DNA of 64,000 nt from Agarophyton chilense (lineage: Eukaryota > Rhodophyta > Florideophyceae > Gracilariales > Gracilariaceae): positions 62,001-126,000 of the forward strand of contig JARGXX010000098.1 in NCBI GenBank assembly GCA_030374765.1, given 5' to 3'. Positions 7,827 to 57,927 of the stretch are shown here, in pieces. The notes below the pieces were generated by a model. The model saw only the letters and a program-made list of their open reading frames with translations, was not told where the DNA came from and made no database searches. The position numbers and the translations under genes were made by a program. How positions within the stretch are numbered: position 1 is the first letter of the stretch; each line of letters starts with the position of its first letter.

Positions 7827-9983
7827 ATGTTGGTACTACTGGAAAGGTTGGATACGGTGGCCGTCTCCTCAGAACGGACCGAGTAGGCGCCACTTCAGAA
7901 GGATGAGTACCCACTGGTGTTCACGGCAGCGGGGGAGATCGCGTCATCACCTCGTTCGTCGGGTCGAGCTATGGCCTTCCTAACCATATCAGGGAGCGGC
8001 CCATCGCGTGGCCGTGGAAGCGGTGGTATTACCAAGAGGGTGACTAGCTCGACTTCTCGAACGCCTACCAACATTGGTTTTCGCAGCGTGCCTGTCCCTG
8101 CGACACAGTTCTCCCCTGGGACTCCGGCTGGCCCATACCAACGCAGTGGTGGACTTCCTCCGACAACACAAACCAATTGGGCTCACAATCTCGCACTCGG
8201 AGCGGCGAACCGGACGACGAGTCAGTATGGACCTTTTGGTATTACCTTCGACCAGGTGACGAACAATGACCTGTTGAAGCACGATTGGCCTGTGGCGGTG
8301 GGTAATTCGTCACTTCCGGCAGCTCTTACCAGACCACATTCGGATACCTACTTGGGATTTTCCCGTTGGGACTGCGAGCGCCTTCGCTCCGCTCCATTGC
8401 TTTTGAAGAAACGGGACCAAAGTCTCAACCTCGTCAGGGTCGACTGGAATGTTACCAGAGTCGGCAGTTTCATACACCTTTGAGGTATTTCATCCCGCTG
8501 ATATATCTGAGCGACTTTCCATATGTGCGCATCGAACCAGAGCTGGATTATTACCGTCGATTGGTGGTGCAAGTGTGCCAGTACCCGTCTACTCCGGAGA
8601 CTTATCTTCCGGTTTCACCTGACTTGGTTTCCCTGAATCATCCTTTCACCACTATCAATTGGGCTGACCGTAGTAGGTGGGGCGAGGATGCAGCGACGGA
8701 GAGTCGCATTCGTACTTGCAACTCTTACACTCGCGTTATGCATATGCTTCATAATGTCGAGTAGTTCTCACAACTTACGAAGGACAGACGAGATTGATAC
8801 GTGATTCGAACAGAGTTGTGGGAGTCCTATGAGGTTCCTTTATCACTGAACGTGCCCACTCCGCCGGTCTTGGCGTACTTCGGGAGTCAGATTTCCCGGA
8901 ACCTAGAGCGATATATCCTCATTTGGTGGATTGCTCTCTCGGAGTGGACCGTGTTGGTTGCCATCCTGGCTCTGGAGACCACCCGTTACGGTATAGATTG
9001 GGATTGTCGCAATCCCGACTCTGATATATACCGAGATGGTTTTCAACCTGTAGGTCGCATCTTCTTCATACCTCTGAGAGTTGCCCAGGATATTTTTCGA
9101 TTTAATTACGAAACATCGTGAAGAGGACCAATTATACCGTTAAGGACTTGAACTCGTATCTCGAGCAGAGCAAGAATTACCATTGGGATTCCCATCAAGG
9201 TTGGGAGGCTTTCGATCCCGCAACTTGGGAGATTGTGCCTTGCCACGCCCAATATTATACCGGGAGCCTCCTGTTTATGGAGCTCCCGCGAGCCCCGAAC
9301 CTTATCACGGTACTGTCGAGACACCGGTTGGTCGTTATGCTGGTCCTCTCCCGTCCGAGCCGTTACCTCAAGGTCGTAAGTCGCCTATCCCTACGGGTGT
9401 GACTCCTACTCAACCGAGCTCCTCGCGGGTTGCTGGTCCGGTTTGACCTCTGTAGGCGGGTATTACTCGTCCTCCACCTCAACCCATGATGGATTCTCCA
9501 GCCGTGGTCGGTTTGCTGGCTCGAATTCGCCAGTCTTGCGTCACCAACTTTCAAAGGGCTGGGCCTACCTCCGTGGTTGCTGCATTAACGCTCCTTGAAG
9601 GTTTGCTGCCGCGCCATGCGCAATACATGAAGGCGCTGAACCAACTTAGTGAGTTCCGGAATCAGTTCCAGTTGGACATGTACCAACCGGCCACCCATCA
9701 GGTTACCATTCTGGCAAGCGTCTCTGCTGCTGCGCCATCTGATCCTTTGACGGATCCCCTTCTAGGTGCTAACTTGAACCCTGCCGTTTTGAAACCCGCT
9801 CCGGCGGTTCCTTTCGTTCATCCTTTTTTTAATTTGACTCCTGTTCCCAGTGGCGGGGCTACCGCTCCTTTGTTACCTTCTAGGTCGATGGCTCCTAGCA
9901 TTTCTGCAAGTTTTCCTCTGTGGGTGGTCAATAACACGGGTCCTCCTGATTCCATTGTTCCTAAACCGACAGGTCCTTCTTAA
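7827..9983 (+). pseudogene. Antisense accessory ORF of family A, frameshifted (A2)
   Basis: This is the counterpart of 3298-5505. It starts at an ATG (7827) and hits an A2-specific stop at about 7884-7886. It then runs open in pieces 7917-8483, 8366-8764, 8801-9121, 9118-9446 and 9486-9983. Conserved blocks are PPVLAYFGS, LSEWTVLVAIL and FFIPLRVAQDIF. Two of the frame changes match those in A1. It lies opposite to pol, between the chromodomain and the element's 3' end. The product is of unknown function. It matches the intact antisense proteins of B (25970-27865) and D (50288-52063) in its central blocks. Confidence 0.75.
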
Positions 9984-10137: not shown

Positions 10138-11620
10138 CTAAGTTAAGCCGTCTGCGGGCATCGGCTCCTTGCGACGGCGCCAATACCTGATACGGAAGTG
10201 TGGGGGTGTTGCGGCTGGGGGTTCGAGGGTGTCCCCTTCTGGGCACCAGCCGTACCACCTGACGGTGTACTTCAGATCAGTGTAGGTTCGCGTGTGGCTC
10301 ACCAGACGGTCACCGGGAAATTCCTCTGAGGTTTGGTTCTGATCTTTCGGGGGAACGCTTCCTCGAGGGTTCATATGTTCCGAGTTGGGAGCTTTGTGTG
10401 TGGGAGCCGGGTCGGGAGCTCTCGCTGTTACCGTTTGGGGTTCAGTTTCTGTCCCTGTTAGAGGGTAGTTATCCAGATCATCACGTTGACGGTCTTCGTT
10501 CACCTCAATTGGGCTGGGGTCCTCTGAGGGTCGAGTGCGCAGAGCTACAGCTTTGGGCTGTCGGGCTGAGGTGCCTGCCTCAATGCGATGTTGAACCGTT
10601 TCAGGTGCTACTGTAATACGGTCAGTTGATATCGTATTCGGTATTCCATCTTTGTCAACCGTAACGGTGTGGTCTAATGCGTTCAGTACCTTATAAGGTC
10701 CCACTGATTTGGGTAGAAGCTTCGAATTGATATCTCTGTCAACAGCTTCATCGTCTGCTTCATCACCCGGTCGTGGTCTTTTACCTGGAGTTGGATTGTC
10801 TATGTAGACATATTGTCCCGAAGATACAGAGACCCCTTTGGTTACCCTACGGTCGTAGTTGGCCTTGTACCGCTTCTGGGCTGCAGTGAGGCGGCTCTCT
10901 GCATGTTTGAGAGCCCTCCTCAACCGCACAAGGGTATTAAGCTTGACCTGGGCAGGGGTCAGGGCGCCAGCTTCAGTGCTGGTGGTATGATCTCCCTGCA
11001 CTACCAAGACCTGGGGGGTGTCGCGAAAGATCCAAATCAAAGGGAGTGGTCTGCGTTGACCGGTGTACCTGAAGGTTATAGAAGTAGGTGAGCGGTTGCA
11101 CCAGCTCATCCCACCCAGTTTGGTGCTCTTCCGTATAGTGTCGTAGCCTTGATACCAATGTGTGGTTAAAGCGCTCGAACTGTCCGTTTGTCTGCGAGTG
11201 GTAGGCAGTAGTGAAATAGTGCTTGATACACAAGAGGTTACAGACTGCTTCGAAGAATTTAGATGACAGGTTTGAACCGTTATCGGTAAGTAGGTACAGT
11301 GGTGCACCATACGGGTAGACCCAATTGTTGAGGAACGCGATCGCCAGCGTTGTTGACCTCGTCGTCTTTAGCGGTATCGCTGTAGTGAGCTTCGAGAAAC
11401 TATCGGTGATCACTAGAATGTGCTGATTCCCGTTCCTGGTCTTGGGAAGTGGTCCTAGAAGGTCTATCGCAGCAAACTCCAGCGGACCCGCTGCTGGAAA
11501 CAGCTTGAGGTACGTTCGATGCTTTCGAATACCACCGCGGGTACGAATACAGGATTCGCATTGACCTACAAAGGTATAGACATCATGGGCCATATGAGGC
11601 CAATAGAACCGTTGCCTCAA
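10138..11620 (-). pseudogene. Ty3/gypsy integrase-chromodomain, broken (A2)
   Basis: Open pieces are 11620-10973 and 11310-10138, with a frame change near 11020 (the same one as in A1). The first piece has FYWPHMAHDVY, CESC, AIDLLGPLPKTRNG, LLTDNGSN and NGQFERFN. The catalytic D, D and E are kept, but the usual GQVER reads GQFER. The second holds the C-terminal domain and an intact chromodomain (KYTVRWYGW, then GDTLEPP) ending near 10140. In A1 the chromodomain Trp codon is a stop, so A2 is the better copy of this domain. Confidence 0.85.
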
Positions 11621-11801
11621 GGTGTATTACATCCTGGTGGCACCGGGGTGTCTCGATAGGCGCGGGTAGTGTGCGAGATACAAGACTCTCGGTCGTAGTG
11701 TTTTCGGAACCACTTTTGGACGGCTACCATCCAAGGTTGACCTTCTCAAGATGTACCAATTGTTGTCCACATCGAATGTTGATCCTTTGAAACCAATTTG
11801 G

Positions 11802-13527
11802 TCATCCAGGGTTCTGCAGTACGCATCCTGGACCTGTTCTCTTGTAAATTCCTCTCGGGACTACGGGCATAACGTTCGTTTCCTCTAGGGTCAGTATCTG
11901 CGTTTCCATGTCGGTGTTCCGCAAGGCACCTTCTTCAGGTAAGTCCCAACATCCTTCTAGGTGTTCGCCGGTAGCATTTTGATTTGATGACACCAAAACG
12001 AAAGGGATATCATCTTCCACATGTTATGTCTCTAATCCTGAGTTGTTTAATCGTGTAATAGCGTCAGCTATGTTGTGCTTGATACCTGGACGGTACTGTG
12101 CGTCGTATTCAAACTCTGACAGTTTCAACCTCCAACGGGCAAGTCTACCGGACGCATCTGCGAGTCCGAGGATCCACCTTAAGGCATCGTGTTCCGTGCG
12201 CAGCGTAAAGCGCTCAGCATACAGGTATGGACGGAGCACCAACATGCTACACACTACTCCTAGACATTCCTTCTCGGTTTCCATGTATTTCTGCTCCGCC
12301 TCATTCATAGCGCGGCTCCAGTACCCTATGGATAATTTGTCTGTGTTGTGCTGATCCTGCATGAGACAAAAACCAATTTGGGCATAGGATGCATCTGTAT
12401 CCAGTGTGTACGGTAGACCTGTTTTCGGGAACGCTAAGATTGGCCGCGACAACAGCGCTCGTTTCAATTCCTCAAAGGTATCCATTTCGTCGTTCGATAG
12501 ATTCTCAAACCGTTCAGGTTCACCTTTCTGGAGCTTCTTGTTGAGGGGTGCCGCTATTTTCGCGAATCCCTTCACGAAGCAACGATAGACGTTACATAAA
12601 CCTTTAAAGGATCGTACGGCTGTCTGGGATCGTGGAAACTTGACCTTCTGTACGGCCCTTATATTGCACAGCGCAACCTCTAGGGTACCAGGGCCTATGA
12701 TGTGGCCCAGGTATTCAACCGTTCTGGTAAAGAAGACGCATTTGCGTAGCTTCAGCGTCACCCCCACCTCAGCTAGGAGGGTTAGTATGGTGCGCACGTG
12801 AGCAAAATGTTCTTCTACCGATCTGGAGTAGATGATTACATCATCGATGTATACCAAGGCCGCTGTCGACTTAAGCTTCGAAAGGATGATGTCCAGCGCC
12901 CTTTGAAAGGTGGCTGGAGCATTGCGCAACCCGAAAGGCATTCGAGTGAAGCGAAACTAACCTGCATGGCACATGAAGGTCGTTTTGTTATCGATCTTCC
13001 TCACCTACAGGTACCTGCCAATAACCACAATTGGCATCCAACGTGGTAAATACCTGCGCATCTCCCAAGGAGTCAATGCACTCATCCATTCTAGGTATCG
13101 GGTACGAATCCCTGACGGTCACGCTATTGAGCCTCCTGTAGTCCACACAGAACCTCATACGTTTATCACCTTTCTTTTGAACCAGAACCACCGGACTAGC
13201 CCAATCTGGGTTGGCTAGTTCAATTACACTTTCTTTGAGTATTCGCTTCACTTCTTTGAGTTCTACTTCTCTCGCCTTCGGACCTACACGGTATGGTTGC
13301 TGATAAATCGGCTTCGAGTCAGGGAGGAGCTCGATGCAATGCTGTGTGGCTTTAATTTGGCCCAGATGGCCTGACCACATAGTTTCAAACTCCTCCAGAA
13401 GGTCGAGAATACGGCCCCGCAGTTGATCGTTTTCTTCACCGATCTGGACTGTATCTTGCCATTGCCTCTCAGGGTCAGGTTCCTCTTCTTTTTCTACCGA
13501 TGCCTTATCGGTTATCTTTGCTTCCAC
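11802..13527 (-). pseudogene. Ty3/gypsy reverse transcriptase-RNase H, broken (A2)
   Basis: Piece 13527-12988 covers the region before RT and the fingers/palm (LLPDSKPIYQQPYRVGPKAR; CVDYRRLNSVTVRDSYPIPR), ending at EEDR where one extra base shifts the frame. Piece 12941-12024 has MPFGLRNAPATFQRAL, the active-site YIDD, the thumb and RNase H (DTDAS). It stops after LET; 12020-11802 is the in-frame continuation. The lesions match A1. The enzyme would copy element RNA to DNA in the virus-like particle, but this copy cannot. Confidence 0.88.
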
Positions 13528-14447
13528 CTTGGTATTTATCGATACCTCTGTGGTTGTGGACGCATTTGCGCACCCCCTTCCTTATCGAAGGCGACCTCGC
13601 CGGGATCAGTGTGAGCTACGGTTAAGACCCCTTATGGTGCCGGTAGTGCGATGCCTACATTGGTATTTTTCGGCAACTTCACCTCGTGACTGCTGAAGTT
13701 ACTGCGACACACCTTAAAGGGTTGATTTGGGATGTTGTCGACAATCCCGTTGGCCATCAAGGTGAGGTGTCGATGTGCTCACCTCGGATGGTTTTGTAGT
13801 ATGATCAGCCCGGAAGTCGCACAAGACACCGGTACCAATATTTGGGGCATTGGCGGGATAACAACATGTTTGGTAATGCGCACTTTGTTGGAGACCGTTT
13901 CGGTGGATATCGTCTTCTTCGGTTTGACGAACCATCCCCGTTTGGTTTCTGTATTACCTAAAATGGCAATTCGTCCCCCCTGACGTAGGGCGACGGTATG
14001 GGAACCAGGAAGGATTGCTTTGACATGTCTATCAATGAAGTTCGTATCTAATAGGCAGTCTGTTGGTAGACGGTCGACAACAAAGAATTGCACTCTTATC
14101 TTGAGGTGTCCGAGCTGCACCACAATGGTGAGCCTAACTCGAAGGTTTAATGGGCGCTCATTTGCATCCACCAGCGGGTTGTGGTCGGGAGGTCGGCTCA
14201 AGTTCCGAAGTACCGCCTCAGGTATGACGCGGGAGTTCAGAACGTTTGGGCCGGCCCGCGTACCCAACACGCAGGTGACTGGAACTGCAACGCAATCAGA
14301 GAAACACATTGAAGCACGTACTTTATAGTTGTTGTACTTCATATGACAAACCGGAACTGGTTGTGACGTGTTCTCTCCCACCTTCAAGGTTCTGTGTATC
14401 GATTGGCCTTCAAATTGCAAGTTGGGTTCGGCCATTACGCCAACCAT
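13528..14447 (-). pseudogene. Ty3/gypsy aspartic protease region, dead (A2)
   Basis: The open piece 14447-13779 aligns with the protease of element B, but the catalytic triplet is lost: B reads LDTGAAPN and this copy reads LGTRAGPN. The piece ends at an in-frame stop (about 13779-13781), and the linker to RT (13778-13528) has at least one more stop. The frame is -1 relative to gag, with an overlap at 14435-14447 and a GGAAAAC run at 14453-14459, so frameshifting was the likely route from gag to pol. The protease would cut the Gag-Pol polyprotein. Confidence 0.75.
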
Positions 14448-16645
14448 TCGGGGTTTTCCTCCTGTACGGGAGGGGTTGAGTCCAAGTTTGGTGTTTCCTC
14501 GACGGTATTGACCTGTACCGTTTTACGCGGTTGGAACATATTTTGTGCTTGCGTTGAAGACCCATAGAGGCGTTGGTGATTCTGCGTGCGAGCCTGAATC
14601 ACCTGGTCTCTCATCTGTGGAGAGAAGTTAGCACAATTGTTTGCCAAATGGTCTGTCGCGAGAAAGAACAAGCAAACGAGGCCTGCGGTTTGGGGGTCTC
14701 GCGTTACCATTGAGGGGGGCTTCGAAAGCTTGTTGGTAAAAACAGTGGCGTAGGATGTGGGTGGCGAGTTATGGGAGCTCGCTCCCTGCATCCTCTGCGA
14801 GCTCATCGCACTTGGCGGCGATTCTACCGAGTTTGGTGTACGCGTTGACGACCAATTTCCTACCTTCGAAGGTCTCGAGAACCGCCCCTGGGTCGCTACC
14901 AAGTGGATAGCGATTCCTGTAGGTACTTCGATGTGGGAGCTACCCTCTGGGATTTTGATATCTTCAATTTCCAAGACAGACCTTTTGGATTTATCCTTCG
15001 AGGCTGGAGGCACGGCTGGTCTCTTTCCCAGCCAAAGGGTATCTCCAAGGCCCTGGGAGTATCGAACCAGCCCATTGTAGTCTACCTTTCGGTTAGTGGC
15101 CAGGTAGTTGCGTACCTGGGAACGGATCGCTTTGTCGACATTGTCGGCAAATAGAGACTTTAACCTAGAGGTAGTGAACACATTTCCACAACGGGTTTCC
15201 AGATTCCACAGCGCGAGCGAAAACTTCGATTCGGTTTGCCCAGACCTTTGATGGTAGGCGAGGACTTCTGACTAAGCCTCTTGGATATCCTCATCGGTGG
15301 CGTATGTTTCCAAAAGGAAATTGACCACCTCTGGGTATGACTCCAACATCTCTGTGCCATCCTCATATATCGTTAAGGTATTGCCGCGGAGCCTACCCTG
15401 CAGCAAGTAGTACTCTTGTCCTTTCAGGTAAAAATGAAATAGCCACATAGCAGCGTCCTCGGAAAAACCATTTTGGTCACATGCAAGCTTGAACTTCTGT
15501 AGAAACTCAATCACCGCAATAGGATCCGTACCTGTGAAGGTGGTGTCACCCATTAGGAAGCTGAGCTTCTTTTGGTGCTTAGTAATATTCTGAGCAACCT
15601 CTTGGGTGTATTCAGAAGACTTGTTGATCAACCGATAAGTCCTGTAATCAACCGCTTTGGTGAACATATCGTTCAACGGTTGGTGCACCTCCAGGTCCAT
15701 TTTGATGTCCGTCTCGGAGTCGGGCGACTCATTGTTTCGCTTTATACCCTTTCGGTTATTTTTCGACAACTTCTTCGTCGACCTGTTTGGTTTCTTCTTC
15801 TTCTTACGTTTACGGTCATCATCCGACGATGAACTCGTATCGGAACTGGAGTCTGACGAGTCTGGGTCTGAATCATTTTCTCGATTCTTTCCCCTCTTCG
15901 TCCTCCGCTTCTTCCCTTTTTGGTTTCTTCGTCGCTCATCCAACAAGTCAGACGAATTGACCTTGGGACCACCTCCATGGGTATCCTTTTGAACGAAACC
16001 AGTAATTGGTGGCAGATAAATGTCTTGAGGATCTACCTTCCCCGGGACCTCTTGAATGTGCCTTGGACCTTGTAGGTACTCACTATCAGTAGGTAAGTGT
16101 TTGGAATGGGTGGCCTGAACCATTTGGAGCCCTTGTGGTATGCGCTTTGTGATGTTCACCTGTGTAGGTCGGGATTCGCAGAATCCCTCGGAAACCCAAA
16201 GGTCCTGCACAGCGCAGTAAGCATGCTCCCTAGCATCTGTAAAGAGATACTGTTTCACCATTTCAGGTATCCTTTCCAACAGCTCTTGAGCTGCTCGGTC
16301 AACCATAATACGGGTATATGCATCGACGTCCATTGAGGGCTGAACCATCCGGTTATCCGACTTCTCCTTTACGGTTAATGCATCCTCGACCGCGAGGGTG
16401 ACGAGCGCTTTCGCTCGCTCTTCGAACTGAGGCCATAGCTCCTCCGCTGCAACCTCTATTGGTAATTCCCTTTGAGGTTCGGTTGCCAAAGGCGGCGGAC
16501 CATGTACCTTTACGGTTTTGTCCAGAGGGTGCCAGAGGAGCTCCTCGGGATTCTCCAGATTCGGTTGAGCCGATGGGGCTCCTTTAGGACCTTTATGGCT
16601 TCGTGGGGCGCTTGCACCACGCGTATATCTTTTAGGTCGTTCCAT
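14435..16645 (-). pseudogene. Ty3/gypsy gag, one nonsense codon (A2)
   Basis: The first piece (16645-15272, 457 aa) has a charged N-terminal half, a Ser/Asp/Lys-rich tract (DSSDSSSDTSSSSDDD followed by a basic run) and a capsid-like region (FTGTDPIAVIEFLQKFKLAC). It stops at a TAG at 15272 and continues in the same frame at 15181-14435. The zinc knuckle near 14680 reads C-x2-F-x4-H-x4-C, so its second Cys is a Phe. Gag would form the particle and bind RNA. The leader to the PBS is about 130 bases. Confidence 0.8.
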
Positions 16646-17032: not shown

Positions 17033-17947
17033 TGTAGAGCAACGCCCAGTTAGGGGATACTTGAAGATGCAACTCATAGAATGAGGGTTGAACCCTCCGA
17101 GGGTTATGACTATGATCCCCTCTAAGGTGTGCTGAGGTGGCACTCTTTTCTGGTTAGAGTTCGCCTATAAGGGAAGATTCGGATGGCCCATGGTTGGATT
17201 GGCCCCGTGATACACGTGGCTTAATTTTGGCACCGATTTTCGGATATTTGTTAGAACGTTGGACTTTTGGGCCCTGACAGTGGGATCTCCACGTGTATGG
17301 CCCTGAGCAGGTGTGCACTACTGTAGAGTTTAGTTAGTGGGCCCTACTTAGGGAGATGAGAACTGACAGTCCGAAGCTCAGAGTAAATAGGAACCAAGGT
17401 TGGTCTTTGATACCTTTAGAGGTTCTTCGCCGCCATCGTTTCGGCCTTACAACCCGGAACGGGCTCTGGTTAGCAACGCCTGCGTAGGGACACGACTCCA
17501 CTTGGAGAGTGCCCACGTTTGGGTTCCGTGCAACCACCCCCTTGGGACCGCTCAGACGACCTGCGTGCACGATACCCCGTGGGGGTTCTGCTTACTTGTT
17601 GCGTGCTTTTTGTGTTTCCTTTCGAGGAAAGGTTTTCGCCCCTGTATTGGGTTTCTTTTGTTGTTTCGCCCCTTTTCTGGTTCTCGGGTCCGGTGCCTGT
17701 TAGTGCCCGACCCTCGCCCTGTTTTTCCTCTTCGCCGGATTTTCCCCCATTCTTTGGGATACCCATACCCATTCCCGACCAAACGGTTTCTACCCCTCAC
17801 CTCCGTCGGTACTGCCGGAATCCCCCGTGGGAGTTACACCCCACACTACGGGTGGAACGGAGGGCTCTGTCTCTGAGTCTGCCTCCTCCAGGGAGCAAGG
17901 CTTCGAACACCTTGAGAGCACTTCCCGTCGCCGGGTTTTGCTCCACA
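17033..17947 (+). mobile_element. Element B 5' LTR
   Basis: It begins TGTAGAGCAACGC and ends TTTTGCTCCACA, with TG/CA ends. The copy at 27908-28822 differs at about seven bases. It carries several short CCC/GGG palindromes, for example CCCTCCGAGGG near 17094 and CCCTACTTAGGG near 17343. Confidence 0.93.
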
Positions 17948-18174: not shown

Positions 18175-20205
18175 ATGTCCCCGATTACCCGTGGTTCCAG
18201 GACTGGATCGAACCGTCAAGCGGATTCAGTGCCCCCGGCCCCGCCTAGGTCGAGGAACTCAATTCCCGAAGATCGGAACGATTCCGGTATCGATCCGGAC
18301 ACTCGGAGAGCACCCTCAGTGGTTTCAGGTCCTCGAGAGGTCGTGGCTGTGGGCCCAGCTCCAGTGGTGGAGACCCCCTCAGAAGCACCCCGAAGTCGGG
18401 CCGACCCTGAATTACAGCGCCTGGAGACTCGAATCGCTATCGCCAACGCGGCTCACGTCGAGCTCCTTCAGGAGGTTACTACCCTCCGCCGCAAGGTGGA
18501 GGACGCCCAGGTGCGGGGACTCGCCGATGACCTTCGTACCCTGAGAAGGGATGTGAACTCCCTTTTGGAAAGCTTTGGTACCCCTGGGGTCTTGATCCAG
18601 GAGTACCGGAGCCTCGTGGAGGAACACTGCGTGCAAGCGGAACGCTTCCGAGCTTGGCTGGACACCCTCGAGGCCATTATCCGTATGGACGGAGACCCAA
18701 AAGCCTCGAAGGATAAACCCGACGTTTCGGAAGACGAAGAACACCGCTCCGCTAAACGGGACCGCCGCAAGTCCAAGAAGAGGGTTCACCTCCAAGAGGA
18801 TTTATCGGATTCCGATCCCAATCGCTCGTCATCGAGTTCGTCCTCCGAATCTTCAGATAGTGAAGATGGACGCCGGTCATCCCGGGCGACTCGGTCGAAG
18901 GCTACTTACACCTCTCAAGGGGCAATCCGTACCCGGAAGGAGGGTAGGAAACACCTTGGATTAAGGGAGCTGAAGCCAACGAATCCTCTCTATCGGAAGC
19001 TGCTATCGTACCGCCAGTACCGGTTGGATAACCCTTCGGGAGATCGAACATCTCGCGGAACGGGTAAGGTCAAGGACTACATCAAAAGGCTGAGCATCAC
19101 CCTACAGAAGAGGGAGTTCACAGGAACAGACCCAATTCTGGTGCTCGATTTCCTTGCGAGGTTTGTCCAGGAGGCTGACATCCTCGGTATGAGTGAAGCG
19201 CAAGCGTATCTTGCATTACCCTATTTCTTAAAGGGGATGGCTGAAGGCCAGTTCAACTCCGTCCGTGGATCATCCCGAGCCTCGGAAGGGGGAGTCACGT
19301 GCTGGCCCGAAGCGGTGCAGTACCTCTTGAGGTCATACGCTACTGGAAATGCGATTCAGGAAGCAATCCTTGCATTAAGGGATACGCGGCAGAAGCCGAT
19401 GGAAACCGAAACGGTGTATTCAACTCGCTTGAATAAAGCGTTTCACCGATGCGGGAATGTATTCCCCGCCTAAGAGAGATGCACCATGTTTGTGAATGGT
19501 TTGGACCCCTCGATAAGGGCATTGGTTGCCCGACATCGGGAAGAGAAGCGCAAGCTGACCTACTTGGAACTGGTTCAGTACGCCCAGGCTGAGGGGGATA
19601 CTCCCCGTGCCCGGCAGAACCGAAAGAGTCGGCCGACACGTGCACTCCTCGCCGATGGAGGTAACTCGTCTTTGTCACTCGCAGGAGGCCCTGCCCCTGT
19701 GGGGGTCAATGATAACATTCAATTCATGGGAAGTAACCCCGAATCTATGGGTACGTCTGAGTTGCCGTCGACATCCGCTCCGACTACGGATGATGACCCT
19801 GCGCTCTATACCCAAGGACGGAGGGTGCCAGCCGCATCGCTCCCTTTTGCGAATACCGCTGCTCGGTTCTCTCGCCCCGGATGGAGGGATACAGCACCAC
19901 GTCGCGTGGGTTCACGTCCACAACCGAACCCGGCAGAGCTGATTTGCTATTTGTGTTACCTCCGTGTTCACAAAGCACCAGACTGCACATTTCTTCTGCT
20001 GGAGGGTTCACGAATTACCGCTCAGTACGAGGCTCTGACCCCTGAGGAGAAAGCTCGAGTCCCGAGTAGGTCCTATGAGGAACAAAGGATACTCCGAGCT
20101 CACCTTGCTGACAGGGATACAGAACTTGTACCCGCGAACGGGGAACAACCGGTCCCCTTCGAGGCAGCTGCACCGAATTCGGTGGGGTCCGCTTCGAAAA
20201 ACTAA
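18175..20205 (+). pseudogene. Ty3/gypsy gag of element B (single internal stop)
   Basis: One frame of 677 codons is broken only by TAA at 19471-19473. It starts MSPITRGSRTGSNRQ after a leader of about 200 bases. A coiled-coil-like stretch lies near residues 85-130. A Ser-rich acidic tract follows (SSSSSSESSDSEDG), then a capsid-like region (FTGTDPILVLDFLARFV, CWPEAVQYLLRSYAT) near 320-425. A CCHC zinc knuckle (C-x2-C-x4-H-x4-C, starting CYLCYLRVHK) lies near base 19950. Element D has an ordinary codon where B has the stop (PAGERCTMF), so I read it as a mutation, not a readthrough signal, though the rest is intact. Gag packages the RNA. Confidence 0.85.
20196..20202 (+). promoter_or_regulatory. 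Probable -1 frameshift site at gag/pol of B
   Basis: GAAAAAC in the gag frame (codons AAA AAC, then the TAA stop at 20203-20205). Pol is open in the -1 frame across this point. At the same place D has GGGAAAA, which fits the X-XXY-YYZ slippery form. Confidence 0.55.
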
Positions 20206-20207
20206 AC

Positions 20208-23200
20208 TTGGGAGTCTCCCCTGCGGGAGGGGCGTCTTCTAAGCCGGAGTTGAAGACGCCCGAGGCGCTCCAGCTTCGCTCCCCAGCTGTGACTATCCTT
20301 TCAAGGAGAACGGCTGACACAGACGTTAACTCGAGATACTTTAGTGTCCTCCGTCTCCCGTGGATACGGTCCCGTAATCTCCGTATTCCGGATCGAGTTA
20401 TGGTAATGGCCAAGCGGAATTATAAAGTATTCGCCGACTTCGGCCTGTCCAACAAGTTTATGGTTCGTCAAATATCTGTCCTGGATACAGGAGCCGCTCC
20501 TAACTTAATTCATGTTGAATTGTTACCTCCGCTGCTCCGGGTTCAAGTTCGTACCGGTCCACGTTTGGATATCGCCGATGCGAACAACAATCCGCTACGG
20601 ACACTGGGTACAATTTCCCTCATGGTGAGGTTAGGCTCCTATCTCGTTCAACTAGAGTTTATTGTATGCAAGTCCATTGCAGCACCAGTCATACTGGGTT
20701 GTGACTTTTGCGACCGCTTCGTGGAAGCCATCCGTCCTCGGAATAGAACTGTGGAACTCGAAGACGGGTCTACGATCCCAATCGTTCGTAACCCCTTACA
20801 GGGAGCAGCGCGAACACGCGTTCCTCTCCCTCTCGCGCAGGAATCTGTGAAGAAGGACCCGGTGTCTACACGGGTAAAGGTTGCGAGGTCAGTGGCTATC
20901 CCGCCAGAAACCCAGGTTTGGGTCACAGTTGTTACCAAGCAAATTGGTGTGCATGTGGTACAACCGAACCCGTCTCTGTATACGCGGCGTCAACTCGCCC
21001 TTGCGAATGGGGTTGTCTCCGTGGAACCGGATAAACCTTTCAAGGTTTTGGTAGCCAACTTTGGAAAGACAACGCAGCATTTGGTCAAACACCAGATCCT
21101 GGGTTCTGTTCTTCCACACCCGCATGCGGTCGTACCTACAAAGATCTCTATCGCAAAGATCCTTGGTGTGGCGGACCCTAAGGAGGGGGAGGACACTGCC
21201 GAAATCGCGGAAGACGGTGAGCATACGACTGTAGCTCCACACGCTGAACACTTTAAACCTCAGGAGGTTACGGCCCCTATCACAGGAGCAGACCAGACGG
21301 ATCCTGTTCAGGAATTGGAGAAATGGGATCTCAACCATGTACCCGCATCTCATCGGGAGAAGCTGAGGCACATGCTTCGTGAATTTACCCCCATGTGGGA
21401 TGGTTCCCTTGGAACTATTGGGATTACAGAACACCGCATCGACTTGTTACCGAACACTCGGCCTATTGCCCAACACCCTTACAGGGCTGGACCAAAAGCT
21501 CGGGAAGAGGAGAAATCTCAGGTGGAGAAGATGCTTAAAGCTGGCGTAATTGAACCTGCCCAGTCCGCTTGGGCCTCACCAGTGGTGTTAGTTCCGAAAC
21601 CGGATGGATCGTTGCGTTTCTGCATCGATTACAGACGCCTGAACGAGGTAACCATTAAGGATGTGTACCCGATCCCTCGGATGGACGAATACATCGACTC
21701 CCTTGGGAGCGCTACTGTTTTCTCTACCCTCGACGCCAATTCGGGCTACTGGCAAGTCCCTATTAGGGAGGAAGATCGAGACAAAACGGCTTTCGTGTGT
21801 CATCAAGGACTTTTCCGATTCCGGAGGATGTTTTTTGGGTTGACAAATGCCCCCGCAACGTTTCAACGGGCGATAGACATTCTGTTGGCTCCCTTCGAGT
21901 GGAGGACGTGTCTAGTGTATTTAGACGACATTGTTGTCTTCTCCAACAACCTGGATCACCACCTCGAACACGTCAGGGACGTAATGAAGATACTCCGCGA
22001 CGCGGGAATCACCTTGAAACTCAAGAAGTGCGAGTTTTTCACCGATTCGGTTAAATATCTGGGTCAAATAATCCGTCCCGGACAGCTTTCAATCGATGAA
22101 GTACGAGTGAAATCCTTGAAGGAAGCAAAACACCCGAAAACTCAAACGGAGTTGCGATCCTTCTTAGGTCTGTGTAACGTGTATCGCCGATTCGTCCCGA
22201 ACTTTGCGGATATTGCCACACCCCTCAACAGGCTCCTGACGAAGGGACAACCAGTTGAACTGGAACCTTTTGGCGACGCAGAAGCGTCTGCCTTCACGGC
22301 ACTGGTGAATGCCGTAACATCACCGCCAATCTTGGCTCTACCCAATCCTGGGCTCCCTTACGAAGTGGACACCGATGCTAGTGCAAACCAAGTAGGGTGT
22401 GCACTGTTCCAATCCTCCGAGGATGGTGAACGTCACCCTATTGGGTACTGGTCACGTTCCCTGAATGTCCATGAAAGGAACTACTCGGTCTCCGAGAAAG
22501 AATGTTTAGCCGTTGTGTGGCCCTTAGCTACACTTCGCCCCTATCTGATGGGTACTCGTTTCAAAGTCCATACGGACCTCGCATGCTTGCGTTGGCTCCT
22601 GGAGATCTCCGAACCCTCGGGCCGCCTTATGCGCTGGCGTCTCCGACTGTCGGAATTCGACTTTGAGATCCTGTACAAGAAAGGGAAGCTGAACACTCAG
22701 GCTGATGCACTATCCCGCTTGGGAACCACAGCGGAAACGGAACCCTACGAGGACGATGACATCCCATGCTTTATGGTATCGGACCTCGAGGGAGGAGCTC
22801 AACCGCTGACGGATGATGTTTGTGACGATATACTCGTCAACGAGAGTCTGGATTCGCCGACCGGCTCTTTTATACGTATCTCTCCAGAGGAGATGATACG
22901 CGAGCAACAGCTCGACCCATTCTGTACACGGATTCGGGCTCGCCTCAACGGAGGATTTCAGTTACCTTTCGAGGACGACGATCAGGGTTACCTAATCAGG
23001 ACCGTTGGACCTCGCCCGAGGATAGTGGTGCCGCACACCCTAAAACAGAGGGTATTACACCTCACTTACTATGTGAAGGTTGGCGCCCACCCCGGGGGAA
23101 GAAAACTGTACCTCACGTTGAGAAGGGACTTTTACTGGCCGGCAATGGCATTCGATTGTTACGCCGTCAGACGGGCCTGCGCCAATTGCGCCAAGAATGA

Positions 23201-24740
23201 CGTCAAACTTCTGAAGCACTCTAAGAAGTTGACGCTGTTCCCGGCACGGGCTCCACTCGAATTCGTGGCCATAGACATCCTAGGGGAGTTTATCAGGACG
23301 CCCCGAGGTCATCGGTATCTGCTTGTCATTTCTGACAGATTCTCTAAGCTAACGAGAACTGTGCCGCTGAAGCGGATCACCGCCGCTACCGTCGCGCAAG
23401 CGTTCGTGACTCATTGGGTGTTCGTATATGGACCGCCGGTGCAGTTGTTATCCGACAACGGAGGGCAATTCGCATCAAAGTTCTTTCAGGATGTATGTCG
23501 AATCCTTGATGTAAGGAATTTATTTGTTACTACGTATCACCCTCAGGGGAATGGCCAGGTGGAGAGGTTTAACCGCACGATACTCAACGCTTTGAGATTG
23601 TATGTTGCGGATCACCCCAAAAATTGGGACTTGTACACAGACGCTATCACGTATGCATACAACACCCAGGTACATCGGGTTACATCGTTATCCCCATTCG
23701 AAATGGTACTGTCGAGGACACCGCCGCCAGTCGCCATTGAGGCTCAACCGACGCTGTCGACGTACCTGTCACCGGGATTGTACCGAGAAGCCTGGAAGGA
23801 GTGGCTTACGAAGATGGTGCCGATAGCCCGGAAAGCAATGGACAAAGCTCAACGCGCCTACAAGAAGGACTTTGACAATCGGGTTCGCAAACCTCTACCT
23901 CAGGTGGAGCCCGCCGACTTCGTCTTCCTTCAAAAGGAATACTACAATCCTGAAAAGGAACGTAGGCACAAGCTTTCGCCAATTGTGGACGGACCCTATC
24001 GTGTGGTTTCCGTAGACCCGGAAACGGTGGTATTGGATATCGCTATCCGCCACGAACGGATCTCCAGGGACCGCATCACACGAGCGCCCAACCCAAATGT
24101 GGAATTGGTGTCGGCACCAACGCCCTCCACAGGGGATGATTCAACGGAAGTTAACCCGTCAGGCGGAGATTGGAACACCCGCCCCGTTATACTTCCGCAC
24201 CCGGAACGTGGTTTAACCGACCTACCGGAAACTTCGGATACTCCCGAACCTGGGCCCGCTCCCTCAAGGGCCCAGTCAACGAACTCTTACAGAGCTACTC
24301 CCCCACCGGAGGTAATCAAGCCTCCTGGCTCTTCGCCTAAGGAGGGGGAGGAGGACTTAGTTCCTTCGCAGGACGATGCTTCGGCGTCAGCCAGTCGCCC
24401 TAACAGGGAATCTAGTTCTCACAGTGAGACGGCGAGCCCGACCGAGCCGGCGACAGAGAAGTCACAACCCCAGCGTATGGGTAGCGACATCACCGCCGAC
24501 CCAGCCGAGCACGACGTCAGAAAAGATGACGAAAACCCGCCTAGGGAGAGTCGTGTGGAGAACTCCGCACCCGGAACGCCTACAGAGCCGACGATCACCC
24601 GCCGCCGCGGACAAGACACTGAGGTGTCGCACACTCAAACCCCACTTTCTCGGGAACGAGCTGTGTCAGCGGACCCGCACGGGGAAGATCTCGACGACGA
24701 GGTTGACCAAATTTGGCTCTCCGTTATGGAATGGGAATAG
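20208..24740 (+). CDS. Ty3/gypsy Pol polyprotein of element B (PR-RT-RH-IN)
   Basis: An open frame of 1510 codons lies in -1 relative to gag, so translation probably enters by frameshifting and 20208 (TTG) is not a true start. Domains in order: aspartic protease (LDTGAAPN, about residue 90); RT from about 400, with SLRFCIDYRRLN, LDANSGYWQVP and active-site YLDD near 575; RNase H with DTDAS near 725; HHCC zinc-binding region ending CANC near 995; integrase core with AIDILGEF, LLSDNGGQF and GNGQVERFN giving D, D, E between 1025 and 1120; then a C-terminal domain and a long acidic/Pro-rich tail. All catalytic residues I can check are present, so the enzymes could be active. The chromodomain expected at the end is in a later ORF (25290-25580) after a stop. 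Confidence 0.93.
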   Translation: MGVSPAGGASSKPELKTPEALQLRSPAVTILSRRTADTDVNSRYFSVLRLPWIRSRNLRIPDRVMVMAKRNYKVFADFGLSNKFMVRQISVLDTGAAPNLIHVELLPPLLRVQVRTGPRLDIADANNNPLRTLGTISLMVRLGSYLVQLEFIVCKSIAAPVILGCDFCDRFVEAIRPRNRTVELEDGSTIPIVRNPLQGAARTRVPLPLAQESVKKDPVSTRVKVARSVAIPPETQVWVTVVTKQIGVHVVQPNPSLYTRRQLALANGVVSVEPDKPFKVLVANFGKTTQHLVKHQILGSVLPHPHAVVPTKISIAKILGVADPKEGEDTAEIAEDGEHTTVAPHAEHFKPQEVTAPITGADQTDPVQELEKWDLNHVPASHREKLRHMLREFTPMWDGSLGTIGITEHRIDLLPNTRPIAQHPYRAGPKAREEEKSQVEKMLKAGVIEPAQSAWASPVVLVPKPDGSLRFCIDYRRLNEVTIKDVYPIPRMDEYIDSLGSATVFSTLDANSGYWQVPIREEDRDKTAFVCHQGLFRFRRMFFGLTNAPATFQRAIDILLAPFEWRTCLVYLDDIVVFSNNLDHHLEHVRDVMKILRDAGITLKLKKCEFFTDSVKYLGQIIRPGQLSIDEVRVKSLKEAKHPKTQTELRSFLGLCNVYRRFVPNFADIATPLNRLLTKGQPVELEPFGDAEASAFTALVNAVTSPPILALPNPGLPYEVDTDASANQVGCALFQSSEDGERHPIGYWSRSLNVHERNYSVSEKECLAVVWPLATLRPYLMGTRFKVHTDLACLRWLLEISEPSGRLMRWRLRLSEFDFEILYKKGKLNTQADALSRLGTTAETEPYEDDDIPCFMVSDLEGGAQPLTDDVCDDILVNESLDSPTGSFIRISPEEMIREQQLDPFCTRIRARLNGGFQLPFEDDDQGYLIRTVGPRPRIVVPHTLKQRVLHLTYYVKVGAHPGGRKLYLTLRRDFYWPAMAFDCYAVRRACANCAKNDVKLLKHSKKLTLFPARAPLEFVAIDILGEFIRTPRGHRYLLVISDRFSKLTRTVPLKRITAATVAQAFVTHWVFVYGPPVQLLSDNGGQFASKFFQDVCRILDVRNLFVTTYHPQGNGQVERFNRTILNALRLYVADHPKNWDLYTDAITYAYNTQVHRVTSLSPFEMVLSRTPPPVAIEAQPTLSTYLSPGLYREAWKEWLTKMVPIARKAMDKAQRAYKKDFDNRVRKPLPQVEPADFVFLQKEYYNPEKERRHKLSPIVDGPYRVVSVDPETVVLDIAIRHERISRDRITRAPNPNVELVSAPTPSTGDDSTEVNPSGGDWNTRPVILPHPERGLTDLPETSDTPEPGPAPSRAQSTNSYRATPPPEVIKPPGSSPKEGEEDLVPSQDDASASASRPNRESSSHSETASPTEPATEKSQPQRMGSDITADPAEHDVRKDDENPPRESRVENSAPGTPTEPTITRRRGQDTEVSHTQTPLSRERAVSADPHGEDLDDEVDQIWLSVMEWE

Positions 24741-25289: not shown

Positions 25290-25580
25290 GTGTGTCTAGA
25301 CCCTACGTTGACACCCTCAAGGGAACTAGAGCGTTCCAAGATGGAAGAGAAGCCCGAACAGGGAAAACTGTACCCGCAGGAATTCGTTATCGATCGCATC
25401 GTGCGTCACATCTACACCCCCGAGGGAGAAGTCCGCTACCAAGTCCGATGGTACGGATTCTCGCCTGATGAGGATACAGTGGAACCCATTGAGCACCTTC
25501 CGAGGTCTAAGGTTTTATCTTATCACCGACGCGCTCGGGTAACCTTGCCTCCAAATCTGGATCGTGCCCAAGTCGGGTAA
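25290..25580 (+). CDS. Chromodomain ORF of element B
   Basis: 96 codons; an internal ATG at about 25341 (MEEKPEQ) is an equally good start. It encodes a complete chromodomain: EFVIDRIVRHIYTPEGEVRY, then VRWYGFSPDEDTVEP and a closing helix. The aromatic residues of the histone-tail cage are at the usual places. It is in the same frame as pol but 550 bases after the pol stop. In element D the chromodomain is likewise separated from the pol tail by stops. Either it is made by readthrough or re-initiation, or the frame has decayed. In chromoviruses this domain directs integration to methylated-histone chromatin. Confidence 0.8.
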   Translation: MCLDPTLTPSRELERSKMEEKPEQGKLYPQEFVIDRIVRHIYTPEGEVRYQVRWYGFSPDEDTVEPIEHLPRSKVLSYHRRARVTLPPNLDRAQVG

Positions 25581-25912: not shown

Positions 25913-25969
25913 ATCAGAAGTTTACTATTGTCGCCAAGCTATGGACTCTACAATTGCCCGAAGGCGGAA

Positions 25970-27865
25970 CTACGGAAAGCCCGAGGAGGGACCCGCCCCA
26001 CCGTGGGGATTCTGACCCTGATGGTACGCCGAGGCGAAAGCCAACATCTGGCTCACATCCGTCATACTCGGGGGAATCGGAATGCCCGCGTTCACCAGGC
26101 CTTGTCGCACACTACCCGCTTGCGGAGTAGCAACTGGCGCCTGCGCAAGGGTGTTCACACCCCACCCGGGGGGAGCAGATGGACCGCCACCGGATGCATT
26201 CGCCGCCGCAGCTGAGGTCGTTCCCACTGGTTGGAAGGGTGCAGATGGCTCCACAGGGAGTACTCCACTAGGAGCTGGCATGTCGTTACCCAACGCTGGA
26301 TCGTCCAGGTCTACTGGAGGCTCGTACTCGTAATCGTCGGTATAAATGAACCCCGTCGGGTGTCCCACCGGCATCGGTCGAGGCGAGTCAATCAGCGCCC
26401 GTGCTTGCGCCGCGCTGATGCGAACCCCTTCGAAGGGATTGTAATAGACCCAGTTACCGGAGCCCGGATCGTACCGGCCAGGAGACTTGTCTCGCGCGGA
26501 TCCTTCCCCTGCGGGCTGATTTGCCACTGGAACTCGATCCCATTGGGTGTTGTCGATCACGTCCAAGATTGGATACAGGTCCTGCACGTTGCTGGCCGAA
26601 CCCAACGCTGGGACAAGGTCGATCTGACGCATGATGGTCCGTAGCATCGGAGGAATATACCAGATACGGAAATGGTCATGAGCATCCCAGAGGAGGTGCG
26701 CCGCTACGCGGGCTGCCCACTCGGCTGCAACGAGGGCCCAGTATCCCGAGTTCGGGTCGTGCATCAAACGAGACCCGATATAGTAGATACATGGGGGCAG
26801 TTCAGAAAAGCACCCTCGGGGGACCTCGACCTTACTCCACCAAGCTGGAAGGGGCACGAATCGCCCAACCTTCGCCGTGTTACGGATACGCTCCAGTTCC
26901 ACGTGAGGATACGGGACAAGGAACCCGAAACGGGAGCGCGAGCGGCGCTCGAAGCGCACGCGTCGATCGAACCCATACTGGGTAAACTGCCGCTGAAGGT
27001 ACCTGAATTCAGCCCGAAGGATGGGACGACTCCGTTGGAGCATATCTTCTCGGAGAGGAAAACCCGGTCCGCGGAACTCGGCTTCGGGAAAGGCTGCCAG
27101 GTTATCCCCGTAGGAGACCTCACCGTACGTGCGGTAATAGGCGACATCGAACCCGTACTCCGGGGGAACCAGATGGTCAAAGCGTGACCTCTCCAATCGC
27201 TGGTAGGCCAGAGCCGCCATCGCTGCGCGCGCCTTGTCCAGGGACTCCCCGCGACCGCGGTATAGATACTGAGGCTCTATGGCTACCCGCACCCTCCAAT
27301 CGGGAGAACGTACAACCTCGACAGGTAAACCACCCGGCAATAAGCCGTCCTCCACGTAGGAGTCGATGAGCTTATCGTCGCGAACCGCTGTCGGATGGAA
27401 CCGCGGAGCGCGGGAATATATCACCGGATCGGTAAGGGGACTCCACCTTCGAAAGGATTCGTTTGAGATCCAACCTCTGGAGTTTGCTATCAAGGGCATC
27501 GCATGAGCGGAGTTCCACGCCACCGCGTTAATGTCCAAATCCTCCTGAGGATGTCGGTTGCTCGCCGAGGCGGAAGGTTCGGTACCTGACGGAGCCGCAT
27601 ACAAACCGGAGAAATATCCACCCTGCTGGGGAGTTTCGTTGTCCGCCGGCGCGGAGGCCGACGGCCCCGAGAGTGGGTTGATGACGTATAAGTTCATTTC
27701 CTTGAGAGGGCTGGTTGAGACTGCTGTTGCGAGAAGTTGCTTATCGCCGAAAGTCGGAGGAGTAGAAGAAAGTTGTACCGATGTGCCGGTTTTGTGGCGA
27801 TCCTCAGAAGTGGTGAAGGACCCCATTGGGAGAGAAGTATATATAGTGACCGGAAAGCGAGACAC
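25970..27865 (-). CDS. Antisense accessory protein of element B (631 aa, unknown)
   Basis: This is an intact frame on the strand opposite gag-pol. It starts 43 bases from the 3' LTR, so its promoter must lie in that LTR. The protein has a polar N-terminus and a globular centre of about residues 130-450, with blocks LVPPEYGFDVAYYRT, PILRAEFRY, PCIYYIGS, VAAEWAARVAAHLL and RIWYIPPMLRTIMR. A Pro/Ala/Gly-rich tail ends in a short helix. No signal peptide, membrane segment, zinc finger or known domain is visible. The centre aligns with the antisense proteins of D (closely) and A (blocks only). It is not an envelope protein, which would be on the sense strand and carry membrane segments. The function is unknown. 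Confidence 0.85.
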   Translation of the reverse strand: MSRFPVTIYTSLPMGSFTTSEDRHKTGTSVQLSSTPPTFGDKQLLATAVSTSPLKEMNLYVINPLSGPSASAPADNETPQQGGYFSGLYAAPSGTEPSASASNRHPQEDLDINAVAWNSAHAMPLIANSRGWISNESFRRWSPLTDPVIYSRAPRFHPTAVRDDKLIDSYVEDGLLPGGLPVEVVRSPDWRVRVAIEPQYLYRGRGESLDKARAAMAALAYQRLERSRFDHLVPPEYGFDVAYYRTYGEVSYGDNLAAFPEAEFRGPGFPLREDMLQRSRPILRAEFRYLQRQFTQYGFDRRVRFERRSRSRFGFLVPYPHVELERIRNTAKVGRFVPLPAWWSKVEVPRGCFSELPPCIYYIGSRLMHDPNSGYWALVAAEWAARVAAHLLWDAHDHFRIWYIPPMLRTIMRQIDLVPALGSASNVQDLYPILDVIDNTQWDRVPVANQPAGEGSARDKSPGRYDPGSGNWVYYNPFEGVRISAAQARALIDSPRPMPVGHPTGFIYTDDYEYEPPVDLDDPALGNDMPAPSGVLPVEPSAPFQPVGTTSAAAANASGGGPSAPPGWGVNTLAQAPVATPQAGSVRQGLVNAGIPIPPSMTDVSQMLAFASAYHQGQNPHGGAGPSSGFP

Positions 27866-27894
27866 CCGCGGCTCGGAATGTTCTTCCTCGTCTT

Positions 27895-27907
27895 AAGGAG
27901 GGGGAGA
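27895..27907 (+). promoter_or_regulatory. Polypurine tract of B
   Basis: AAGGAGGGGGAGA directly before the 3' LTR, as expected for plus-strand DNA priming. Confidence 0.85.
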
Positions 27908-28822
27908 TGTAGAGCAACGCTCAGTTAGGGGATACTTGAAGATGCAACTCATAGAATGAGGGTTGAACCCTCCGAGGGTTATGACTATGATCCCCTCTAA
28001 GGTGTGCTGAGGTGGCACTGTTTTCTGGTTAGAGTTCGCCTATAAGGGAAGATTCGGATGGCCCATGGTTGGATTGGCCCCGTGATACACGTGGCTTAAT
28101 TTTGGCACCGATTTTCGGATATTTGTTAGAACGTTGGACTTTTGGGCCCTGACAGTGGGATCTCCACGTGTATGGCCCTGAGCAGGTGTGCACTACTGTA
28201 GAGTTTAGTTAGTGGGCCCTACTTAGGGAGATGAGAACTGACAGTCCGAAGCTCAGAGTAAATAGGAACCAAGGTTGGTCTTTGATACCTTTAGAGGTTC
28301 TTCGCCGCCATCGTTTCGGCCTTACAACCCGGAACGGGCTCTGGTTAGCAACGCCTGCGTAGGGACACGACTCCACTTGGAGAGTGCCCACGTTTGGGTT
28401 CCGTGCAACCACCCCCTTGGGACCGCTCAGACGACCTGCGTGCACGATACCCCGTGGGGGTTCTGCTTACTTGTTGCGTGCTTTTTGTGTTTCCTTTCGA
28501 GGAAAGGTTTTCGCCCCTGTATTGGGTTTCTTTTGTTGTTTCGCCCCTTTTCTGGTTCTCGGGTCCGATGCCTGTTAGTGCCCGACCCTCGCCCCGTTTT
28601 TCCTCTTCGCCGGATTTTCCCCCATTCTTTGGGATACCCATACCCATTCCCGACCCAACGGTTTCTACCCCTCACCTCCGTCGGTACTGCCGGAATCCCC
28701 CGTGGAAGTTACACCCCACACTACGGGTGGAACGGAGGGCTCTGTCTCTGAGTCTGCCTCCCCCAGGGAGCAAGGCTTCGAACACCTTGAGAGCACTTCC
28801 CGTCGCCGGGTTTTGCTCCACA
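27908..28822 (+). mobile_element. Element B 3' LTR
   Basis: 915 bases, TGTAGAGC to CTCCACA, nearly identical to 17033-17947. It is followed by the CCAAG duplication. On its antisense strand it must promote the 25970-27865 ORF. Confidence 0.93.
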
Positions 28823-28827
28823 CCAAG
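28823..28827. repeat. Target-site duplication of B, right (CCAAG)
   Basis: Second copy of the duplicated target; see 17028-17032. Confidence 0.85.
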
Positions 28828-49370: not shown

Positions 49371-49375
49371 CCCCT
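49371..49375. repeat. Target-site duplication of D, left (CCCCT)
   Basis: CCCCT here and at 58793-58797 directly flank element D. Confidence 0.8.
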
Positions 49376-57924: not shown

Positions 57925-57927
57925 ATT

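What the first reader, a model, noticed from the sequence alone, without database searches (positions are those of the whole stretch)
25970..27865. Three Ty3/gypsy families share a homologous, antisense, undescribed accessory protein
Seen: in A (3298-5505 and 7827-9983), B (25970-27865) and D (50288-52063) a long frame lies opposite gag-pol, always between the chromodomain and the 3' LTR. Blocks line up in order: PP-V/C-x2-Y-x-GS, then (S/A)EW with a hydrophobic helix, then Y/F-x-PP-R-V. B and D match through about 300 residues, and A matches in these blocks. Known: some plant Ty3/gypsy (Tat lineage) elements have antisense extra ORFs, but I know no family with these motifs. Inference: an old, conserved element-encoded function, perhaps regulation of transcription or silencing.
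Basis: partly seen in the sequence, partly recalled or inferred. Interest (0 to 1): 0.9.

Follow-up and report, generated by a model that had tools for sequence, protein, structure and literature searches.

The report
Backward-facing gene in red-algal retrotransposons
Three related families of jumping genes in a red alga each carry, just before their right-hand end and pointing backwards, a gene for the same otherwise unknown protein, which selection appears to have preserved; backward genes in this spot are known in flowering plants and a fungus, but this protein family looks new and its job is not yet shown.

Summary
A, B and D each carry, opposite gag-pol and tail-to-tail with the chromodomain, a long frame before the 3' LTR. 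The proteins are homologous: B-D 43% over 389 residues, E 3e-98; A against B+D by profiles, probability 96.9%, E 1.4e-10; shuffles score far lower. Wherever the chromodomain or pol could be placed the arrangement is the same: A 12 of 12, D 11 of 11, B 20 of 20 places. In A and B, changes shared between copies are constrained (0.44 and 0.42 of neutral; cores 0.27 and 0.23); D is unclear (0.86, p 0.34). So this is a real accessory gene travelling with the element. No Pfam, NCBIfam or PDB relative was found; AlphaFold failed; the large protein database was switched off. Antisense genes in this position are known in plant Grande, RIRE2 and Retand and fungal Boty elements, so this is a new variant of a known kind. 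Most likely function, inferred: an LTR-promoted, nucleic-acid-binding regulator of the element's own expression. Host: probably a gracilarialean red alga.

The parts
25970..27826 (-). B antisense accessory ORF (aORF), 618 aa from the conserved ATG at 27826; open frame reaches 27892, next to the 3' LTR; conserved core about residues 145-525 of the 631-aa listing
   Evidence: ATG in 17 of 18 copies
17033..17947 (+). B 5' LTR
   Evidence: 99.2% to 27908-28822; TG..CA ends, CCAAG duplication at 17028-17032 and 28823-28827
27908..28822 (+). B 3' LTR; 81 nt lie between it and the aORF ATG
18175..20205 (+). B gag region (ORFs 18175-19473 and 19486-20205; gag by position, no Pfam hit)
20208..24740 (+). 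B pol: RT, RNase H, integrase
   Evidence: Pfam RVT_1 1.2e-36, RT_RNaseH 1.8e-32, rve 9.2e-10
25365..25577 (+). B chromodomain region, tail-to-tail with the aORF
   Evidence: 52% to the D chromodomain ORF by tblastn (L001:893-1105)
50288..52063 (+). D antisense accessory ORF, 591 aa from ATG
   Evidence: ATG in 9 of 9 copies
49375..50241 (-). D 3' LTR (element on minus strand); about 46 nt lie between it and the aORF ATG
   Evidence: 98.7% to 57926-58792
57926..58792 (-). D 5' LTR
52396..53037 (-). D ORF with chromodomain, tail-to-tail with the D aORF
   Evidence: Pfam Chromo 4.3e-4, 20.6 bits, below the curated cut-off of 25.1
54209..55657 (-). D pol fragment, protease to start of RT
   Evidence: 58% to B pol over 481 aa
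3298..5826 (-). A1 aORF remnant, broken by frameshift and stops; homologous core within 3956-5026; outer limits approximate
7458..9983 (+). A2 aORF remnant (broken); outer limits approximate
10138..16645 (-). A2 gag-pol remnants (gag by position; RT/RH 12024-12941, integrase 10973-11620, tail 10138-11310)
   Evidence: the A1 equivalents hit Pfam RVT_1, RNase H and rve

Best explanation
A genuine protein-coding accessory gene of a chromodomain-bearing Ty3/gypsy lineage, inherited with the element since before A, B and D split. Shown: position, orientation, homology, conserved start codons in B and D, purifying selection in A and B. Inferred from layout: because only 81 and about 46 nt separate the B and D start codons from the 3' LTR, the mRNA must begin in (or beyond) the 3' LTR or next to it, so the LTR's outer part probably acts as a two-way promoter: gag-pol from the 5' LTR, the accessory gene backwards from the 3' LTR. 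Inferred function: the core has a basic, arginine-containing stretch (net charge +9 in 60 residues in B and D, only about +4 in A; four arginines there kept in the 16-row alignment) next to a hydrophobic W/P-rich part, with low-complexity tails; I think it most likely binds nucleic acid and regulates the element's own expression or silencing, as proposed for plant Grande and Retand antisense proteins. Odds: real selected gene about 0.95; LTR-edge antisense promoter about 0.7; nucleic-acid-binding regulator of the element's own expression about 0.4.
For: Homology of three families. Opposite-strand arrangement: A 12 of 12 loci of L019-L030 (a thirteenth, L048, holds the aORF only), D 11 of 11, B 19 of 20 distinct places by chromodomain and the twentieth, L043, by pol. 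Selection: A shared changes N 103, S 95, ratio to neutral 0.44, p 1.3e-8; core 0.27, p 2.2e-7; nonsense 1 shared against 29 private, X ratios 0.08 and 0.95. B shared 0.42, p 0.001; core 0.23, p 1.3e-4; pol of the same family 0.21. In other frames of A the shared ratio is 1.00-1.36, apart from the antisense frame that shares wobble positions, 0.56. B-D differences pile up at third codon positions, 0.456/0.359/0.676. Divergence runs in the same order as pol: aORF 43% B-D and 22% A-D; pol 58% B-D in the protease part, 48% A-B in RT/RNase H and integrase (different parts, so only a rough comparison). Charge and tails; kept arginines.
Against: D's shared changes are not significantly constrained (0.86, p 0.34; core 0.71, p 0.22), although D's private changes are (0.66, p 0.0098) and its chromodomain ORF is no better (shared 0.77, p 0.34). 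Copies were ranked by aORF protein score, which favours intact frames. In B the antisense frame that shares wobble positions scores 0.40, as low as the aORF itself; it is told apart only by its 20-23 stops per copy. No transcript data. No simple NLS pattern matched; B and D are acidic overall, pI 6.0 and 5.6 (A 8.9). No DNA-binding family hit. No TATAWAW site in either 3' LTR on either strand. No reliable fold.
Confidence: 0.45

Rival explanations
1. The protein works in the particle or at integration (for example packaging, nuclear import of the cDNA complex or target choice with the chromodomain) rather than in gene regulation.
For: It accompanies a chromodomain in every copy placed and its core is about as constrained as pol (0.23 and 0.21 in B). 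PMC7264820 (part 2) raises nuclear import as a possible role for such proteins.
Against: Separate antisense transcription is a poor way to make a structural protein needed in fixed ratio with Gag (argument, not a test). No similarity to B gag: scores 36-45 against shuffle maxima of 52-61.
Confidence: 0.25
2. Anti-silencing factor: it binds the element's noncoding DNA and removes silent marks, as VANC proteins do for Arabidopsis VANDAL elements.
For: Accessory gene kept by high-copy elements; fast divergence between families (22-43% identity), as expected of element-specific factors; basic conserved stretch in B and D.
Against: VANC targets form tandem repeats (PMC10398659 abstract); of the five arrays found in the window only one, two copies of 50 bp at 24904-25005 in B, lies in A, B or D. 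No epigenetic data.
Confidence: 0.15
3. The antisense RNA, not the protein, matters (double-stranded RNA with the genomic transcript), and the ORF is incidental.
For: Antisense regulatory RNAs exist in other elements (PMC7264820).
Against: Amino-acid-level constraint, near absence of shared nonsense and conserved ATG; protein homology between B and D aORFs where blastn (E up to 1e-10, over 80 bp) showed DNA matches only in gag-pol.
Confidence: 0.04
4. Envelope-like or cell-to-cell movement protein.
For: Position between pol and 3' LTR; the A copy has one strongly hydrophobic stretch (Kyte-Doolittle 2.09 over 19 residues).
Against: The same stretch scores only 0.93 in B and 1.17 in D and holds charged residues; antisense orientation.
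Confidence: 0.05
5. Shadow of a sense-strand reading frame or chance open frame.
For: D is open for 411 aa on the opposite strand in 10 of 11 copies; B's wobble-sharing antisense frame has a ratio as low as the aORF.
Against: In D the opposite frame 0 shows ratios 1.17 and 1.14 (which of the three opposite frames is the 411-aa one was not matched, the others give 0.55/1.24 and 1.62/0.91); B has 8-23 stops per copy in its opposite frames; homology across three families is in the aORF frame.
Confidence: 0.02

Closest known systems
Retand-lineage plant Ty3/gypsy elements with antisense TRP28 (Transposase_28, PF04195) ORFs
   Same: Long pol-to-3'LTR region with an antisense ORF in nearly all recent clusters; function unknown, DNA binding predicted (PMC11963269, part 1 of 5 and found passages).
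   Different: Retand is a non-chromovirus lineage found in eudicots and Liliopsida; PF04195 matched none of 17 aligned core members at E up to 10 (HMMER's filters drop most matches above about 0.1) nor the full B, D and L030 proteins at E up to 1.
Maize Grande gene23 and rice RIRE2 antisense ORF
   Same: Antisense, between pol and 3' LTR; Grande's protein is nuclear (PMC7264820, parts 1-2 of 3).
   Different: Grande's promoter lies in the region upstream of gene23; in B and D only 81 and about 46 nt lie between ATG and LTR.
Boty / BcGypsy1 of Botrytis cinerea with antisense gene brtn
   Same: Non-plant LTR element with an additional antisense gene (PMC7264820; passages of PMC8365987).
   Different: Fungal; protein similarity not testable here.
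HTLV HBZ
   Same: Antisense protein; HTLV has an antisense promoter in the 3' LTR (PMC7264820; PMC11963269).
   Different: Retroviral regulator; no comparison of sequence made.
VANC of Arabidopsis VANDAL transposons
   Same: Element-encoded accessory protein; a possible functional analogue (anti-silencing).
   Different: VANC targets are tandem repeats (PMC10398659 abstract), which are nearly absent here. That VANDAL is a DNA transposon is recalled.

Membership tests
Ty3/gypsy LTR retrotransposon with chromodomain | LTRs, target-site duplication, RT-RNase H before integrase, chromodomain after integrase | tested here: met
   B: LTRs 99.2%, CCAAG duplication, RT-RH-IN order. Chromodomain: D Pfam Chromo 4.3e-4, below the curated cut-off; found by similarity to D in B and A loci.
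[quoted passage not shown]
   Position and orientation met: A 12 of 12, D 11 of 11, B 19 of 20 distinct places plus L043 by pol. 'In most copies' not tested: loci were chosen by their aORF, so copies lacking it were not sampled.
Antisense additional ORF between pol and 3' LTR (aORF-3R of Vicient and Casacuberta) | Conserved at a level similar to other element proteins | tested here: met
   B core shared N/S 0.23 (whole 0.42) against pol 0.21; A 0.44 whole and 0.27 core against IN tail/chromodomain 0.50. D not significant for either.
Retand TRP28 protein family | PF04195 Transposase_28 domain | tested here: not met
   No match at E up to 10 in 17 core members or at E up to 1 in full proteins. 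The genome-wide search for PF04195 found nothing, but its controls did not ring either, so that search says nothing.
Grande / RIRE2 / Boty antisense proteins | Sequence homology to those proteins | not testable with these tools
   Their sequences are not held here and the protein database was switched off.
Retroviral-type envelope protein | Transmembrane segment, sense orientation | tested here: not met
   Antisense; top hydropathy 0.93 (B) and 1.17 (D); A has one stretch of 2.09. Signal peptides were not tested.
VANC-type anti-silencing factor | Loss of silent marks on element copies | not testable with these tools
   No epigenomic data.

The most novel reading that the evidence does not exclude
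An ancient, previously unknown family of nucleic-acid-binding accessory proteins, transcribed backwards from the outer edge of the 3' LTR by a two-way LTR promoter, lets red-algal chromodomain-bearing Ty3/gypsy elements control their own expression or escape silencing, making antisense regulators a repeated invention of LTR elements in plants, a fungus and red algae.
Probability: 0.25. Interest if true: 0.75.

Novelty: new variant of a known kind. Interest (0 to 1): 0.55.

Why it matters
Antisense accessory genes of LTR retrotransposons are described mainly from flowering plants and have no established function (PMC7264820, PMC11963269). Here is a case outside land plants, in elements with a chromodomain, with a distinct protein family, three families at different divergence, many copies, and selection measurable against pol. 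If the protein regulates or de-silences its element, red algae offer an independent test of why LTR elements repeatedly carry a gene facing backwards.

Tried and rejected
Structure: two AlphaFold runs, B core with 17 sequences and D sub-core with 16, gave mean pLDDT 30.6 and 33.8; no fold search was run because such models give meaningless matches. Families: Pfam, NCBIfam and PDB by sequence and by profile: no credible hit (two weak chance matches, E 0.16 and 0.52). Outside relatives: IMG/VR and prokaryote genomes, none; both are poor places to look for a eukaryotic retroelement. Origin from gag: no similarity. TATA-like sites: none in the B or D 3' LTR. VANC-like repeat targets: one two-copy array in B. 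Papers: ten searches answered over openly licensed papers; in the listings, and in the passages I read of PMC11963269, PMC7264820, PMC8365987, PMC12477816 and the abstract of PMC10398659, none described an antisense ORF in a red-algal LTR element. Most subscription-journal papers are missing from that library. PF04195 in the genome: uninformative, controls silent.

Full report
What was checked. The finding says that three Ty3/gypsy families in the window carry homologous antisense ORFs between the chromodomain and the 3' LTR. The window lies in an unnamed 79.8-Mb genome. Contig C39, plastid-like by its genes, carries 14 of 15 phycobilisome-family matches, and its allophycocyanin beta chain is identical over 161 residues to PDB chain 5tjf_B. 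I recall 5TJF as Gracilaria chilensis, which the tool did not print, so the host is taken as probably a gracilarialean red alga, species not proven.

The elements. B is a young insertion: LTRs 17033-17947 and 27908-28822 are 99.2% identical, with a CCAAG target duplication; RT, RNase H and integrase follow in that order. D lies on the minus strand with LTRs 98.7% identical. A1 and A2 are broken copies facing each other. A chromodomain is found in D (Pfam Chromo 4.3e-4, below the curated cut-off) and by similarity in B and A loci.

The antisense frames. B's 631-aa frame begins in the listing at a GTG; the first ATG, at 27826, is ATG in 17 of 18 copies. D's ATG at 50288 is ATG in 9 of 9. B and D align at 43% over 389 residues, E 3e-98. 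In the window, tblastn joins A1 to D at 1.0e-9 and to B at 4.4e-6. A longer A frame elsewhere in the genome (842 aa, L030) matches D at 3e-11, and A (9 sequences) against B+D (8 sequences) gives probability 96.9%, E 1.4e-10. Alignment scores lie far above 200 global and 200 windowed shuffles for each pair.

Not a one-off. Only the best candidates are scored, so counts are lower bounds: 70 B, 68 D and 150 A matches were listed. Without internal stops: 37 of 70 B and 27 of 68 D; for A, with a full-length query, 4 of the 54 long matches, the query itself included (a 55th match was a short fragment). Wherever the chromodomain or pol could be placed the aORF faces it on the other strand: A 12 of 12 loci (L048 holds the aORF only), D 11 of 11, B 19 of 20 distinct places by chromodomain and the twentieth by pol. 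Of 15 ten-kilobase B stretches fetched, 13 hold a pol match and all 13 are opposite. These loci were found through the aORF, so I cannot say what share of elements lack it.

Selection. For each variable codon I asked whether changes shared by two or more copies (mostly made while elements still replicated) or found in one copy (mostly made after insertion) alter the protein, relative to a neutral expectation from the same codons. A (13 copies): private changes 0.97 of neutral (core 0.77, p 0.027), shared 0.44 (p 1.3e-8), core 0.27; nonsense 29 private, 1 shared. B (18 copies; two further copies with alignment gaps and three duplicate loci left out): private 0.74, shared 0.42 (p 0.001), core 0.23; pol (11 copies; three with gaps left out) private 0.92, shared 0.21. 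D (11 copies): private 0.66 (p 0.0098), shared 0.86 (p 0.34), core shared 0.71 (p 0.22); D's chromodomain ORF (10 copies) is equally unclear (0.77, p 0.34). Control frames: in A the shared ratio is 1.00-1.36 except in the antisense frame that shares wobble positions (0.56); in B it is 0.86-2.79 except in the wobble-sharing frame (0.40), which carries 20-23 stops per copy. So A and B show that the element lineage kept the protein while inserted copies decayed; D neither adds nor refutes. Copies were ranked by aORF protein score, which probably lowers the private ratios in B and D; the pol comparison is free of this.

Co-inheritance. The aORF diverges faster than pol but in the same order: B-D 43% against 58% in the protease part of pol, A-D 22% over 273 residues against A-B 48% in RT/RNase H and integrase. 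The pol parts differ, so this is a rough comparison; it fits descent with the element better than separate captures, without proving it.

How it may work. Only 81 and about 46 nt lie between the B and D start codons and the 3' LTR, so the message very likely starts in the LTR or outside; a two-way promoter at the LTR's outer edge is the simplest layout (inference). No TATAWAW site was found. The protein has low-complexity tails and a conserved core with a basic stretch (+9 net in 60 residues in B and D, about +4 in A) beside a W/P-rich hydrophobic part. Together with plant precedents this points to a nucleic-acid-binding regulator, but no DNA-binding family matched, no simple nuclear signal was found and the fold could not be predicted.

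Comparison. [quoted passage not shown] Vicient reports antisense TRP28 ORFs in 97% of recent Retand clusters, with predicted DNA binding (PMC11963269, part 1 of 5 and passages read). PF04195 does not match here. The kind is therefore known; the host group, the chromodomain-bearing carriers and the protein family are new as far as these searches reach. The main gap is that the large protein database could not be used, so the spread of the family beyond this genome is unknown.

Noticed in passing
1-6416 and 6915-13239, centre 6417-6914: Two A copies form an inverted pair (92-97% alike) around a 0.5-kb centre holding an A LTR piece (6521-6888). Listed hits suggest other inverted pairs: A on C95 (130330- and 136399+), D on C117 (1234742- and 1237673+).
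   Followed up: partly
17033-28822 within A2: B seems inserted in the A2 5' LTR: 28823-29196 is 90% alike to the A LTR piece 6521-6888, and B is flanked by a CCAAG duplication.
   Followed up: partly
24740-25577: In B the chromodomain match starts about 625 nt beyond the pol stop, with stops between; L031 shows the same spacing (pol match ends at 3247, chromodomain match starts at 3872). Spliced or separate product is open.
   Followed up: no
17950-17967 and about 57907-57924: B and D share a primer-site-like TGGTCTCCCGACTTAGAA next to the 5' LTR and a GTCTTAAGG-plus-G-run tract before the 3' LTR.
   Followed up: no
50348-51541: The D aORF region is also open on the opposite strand (411 aa in 10 of 11 D copies); no clear sign of selection there.
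   Followed up: partly
47589-48761: Tc1/mariner-type transposase ORF (DDE_3 6.6e-18, Tc3 HTH).
   Followed up: no
24904-25005: 50-bp tandem repeat, two copies, 98% alike, in B between pol and chromodomain.
   Followed up: no
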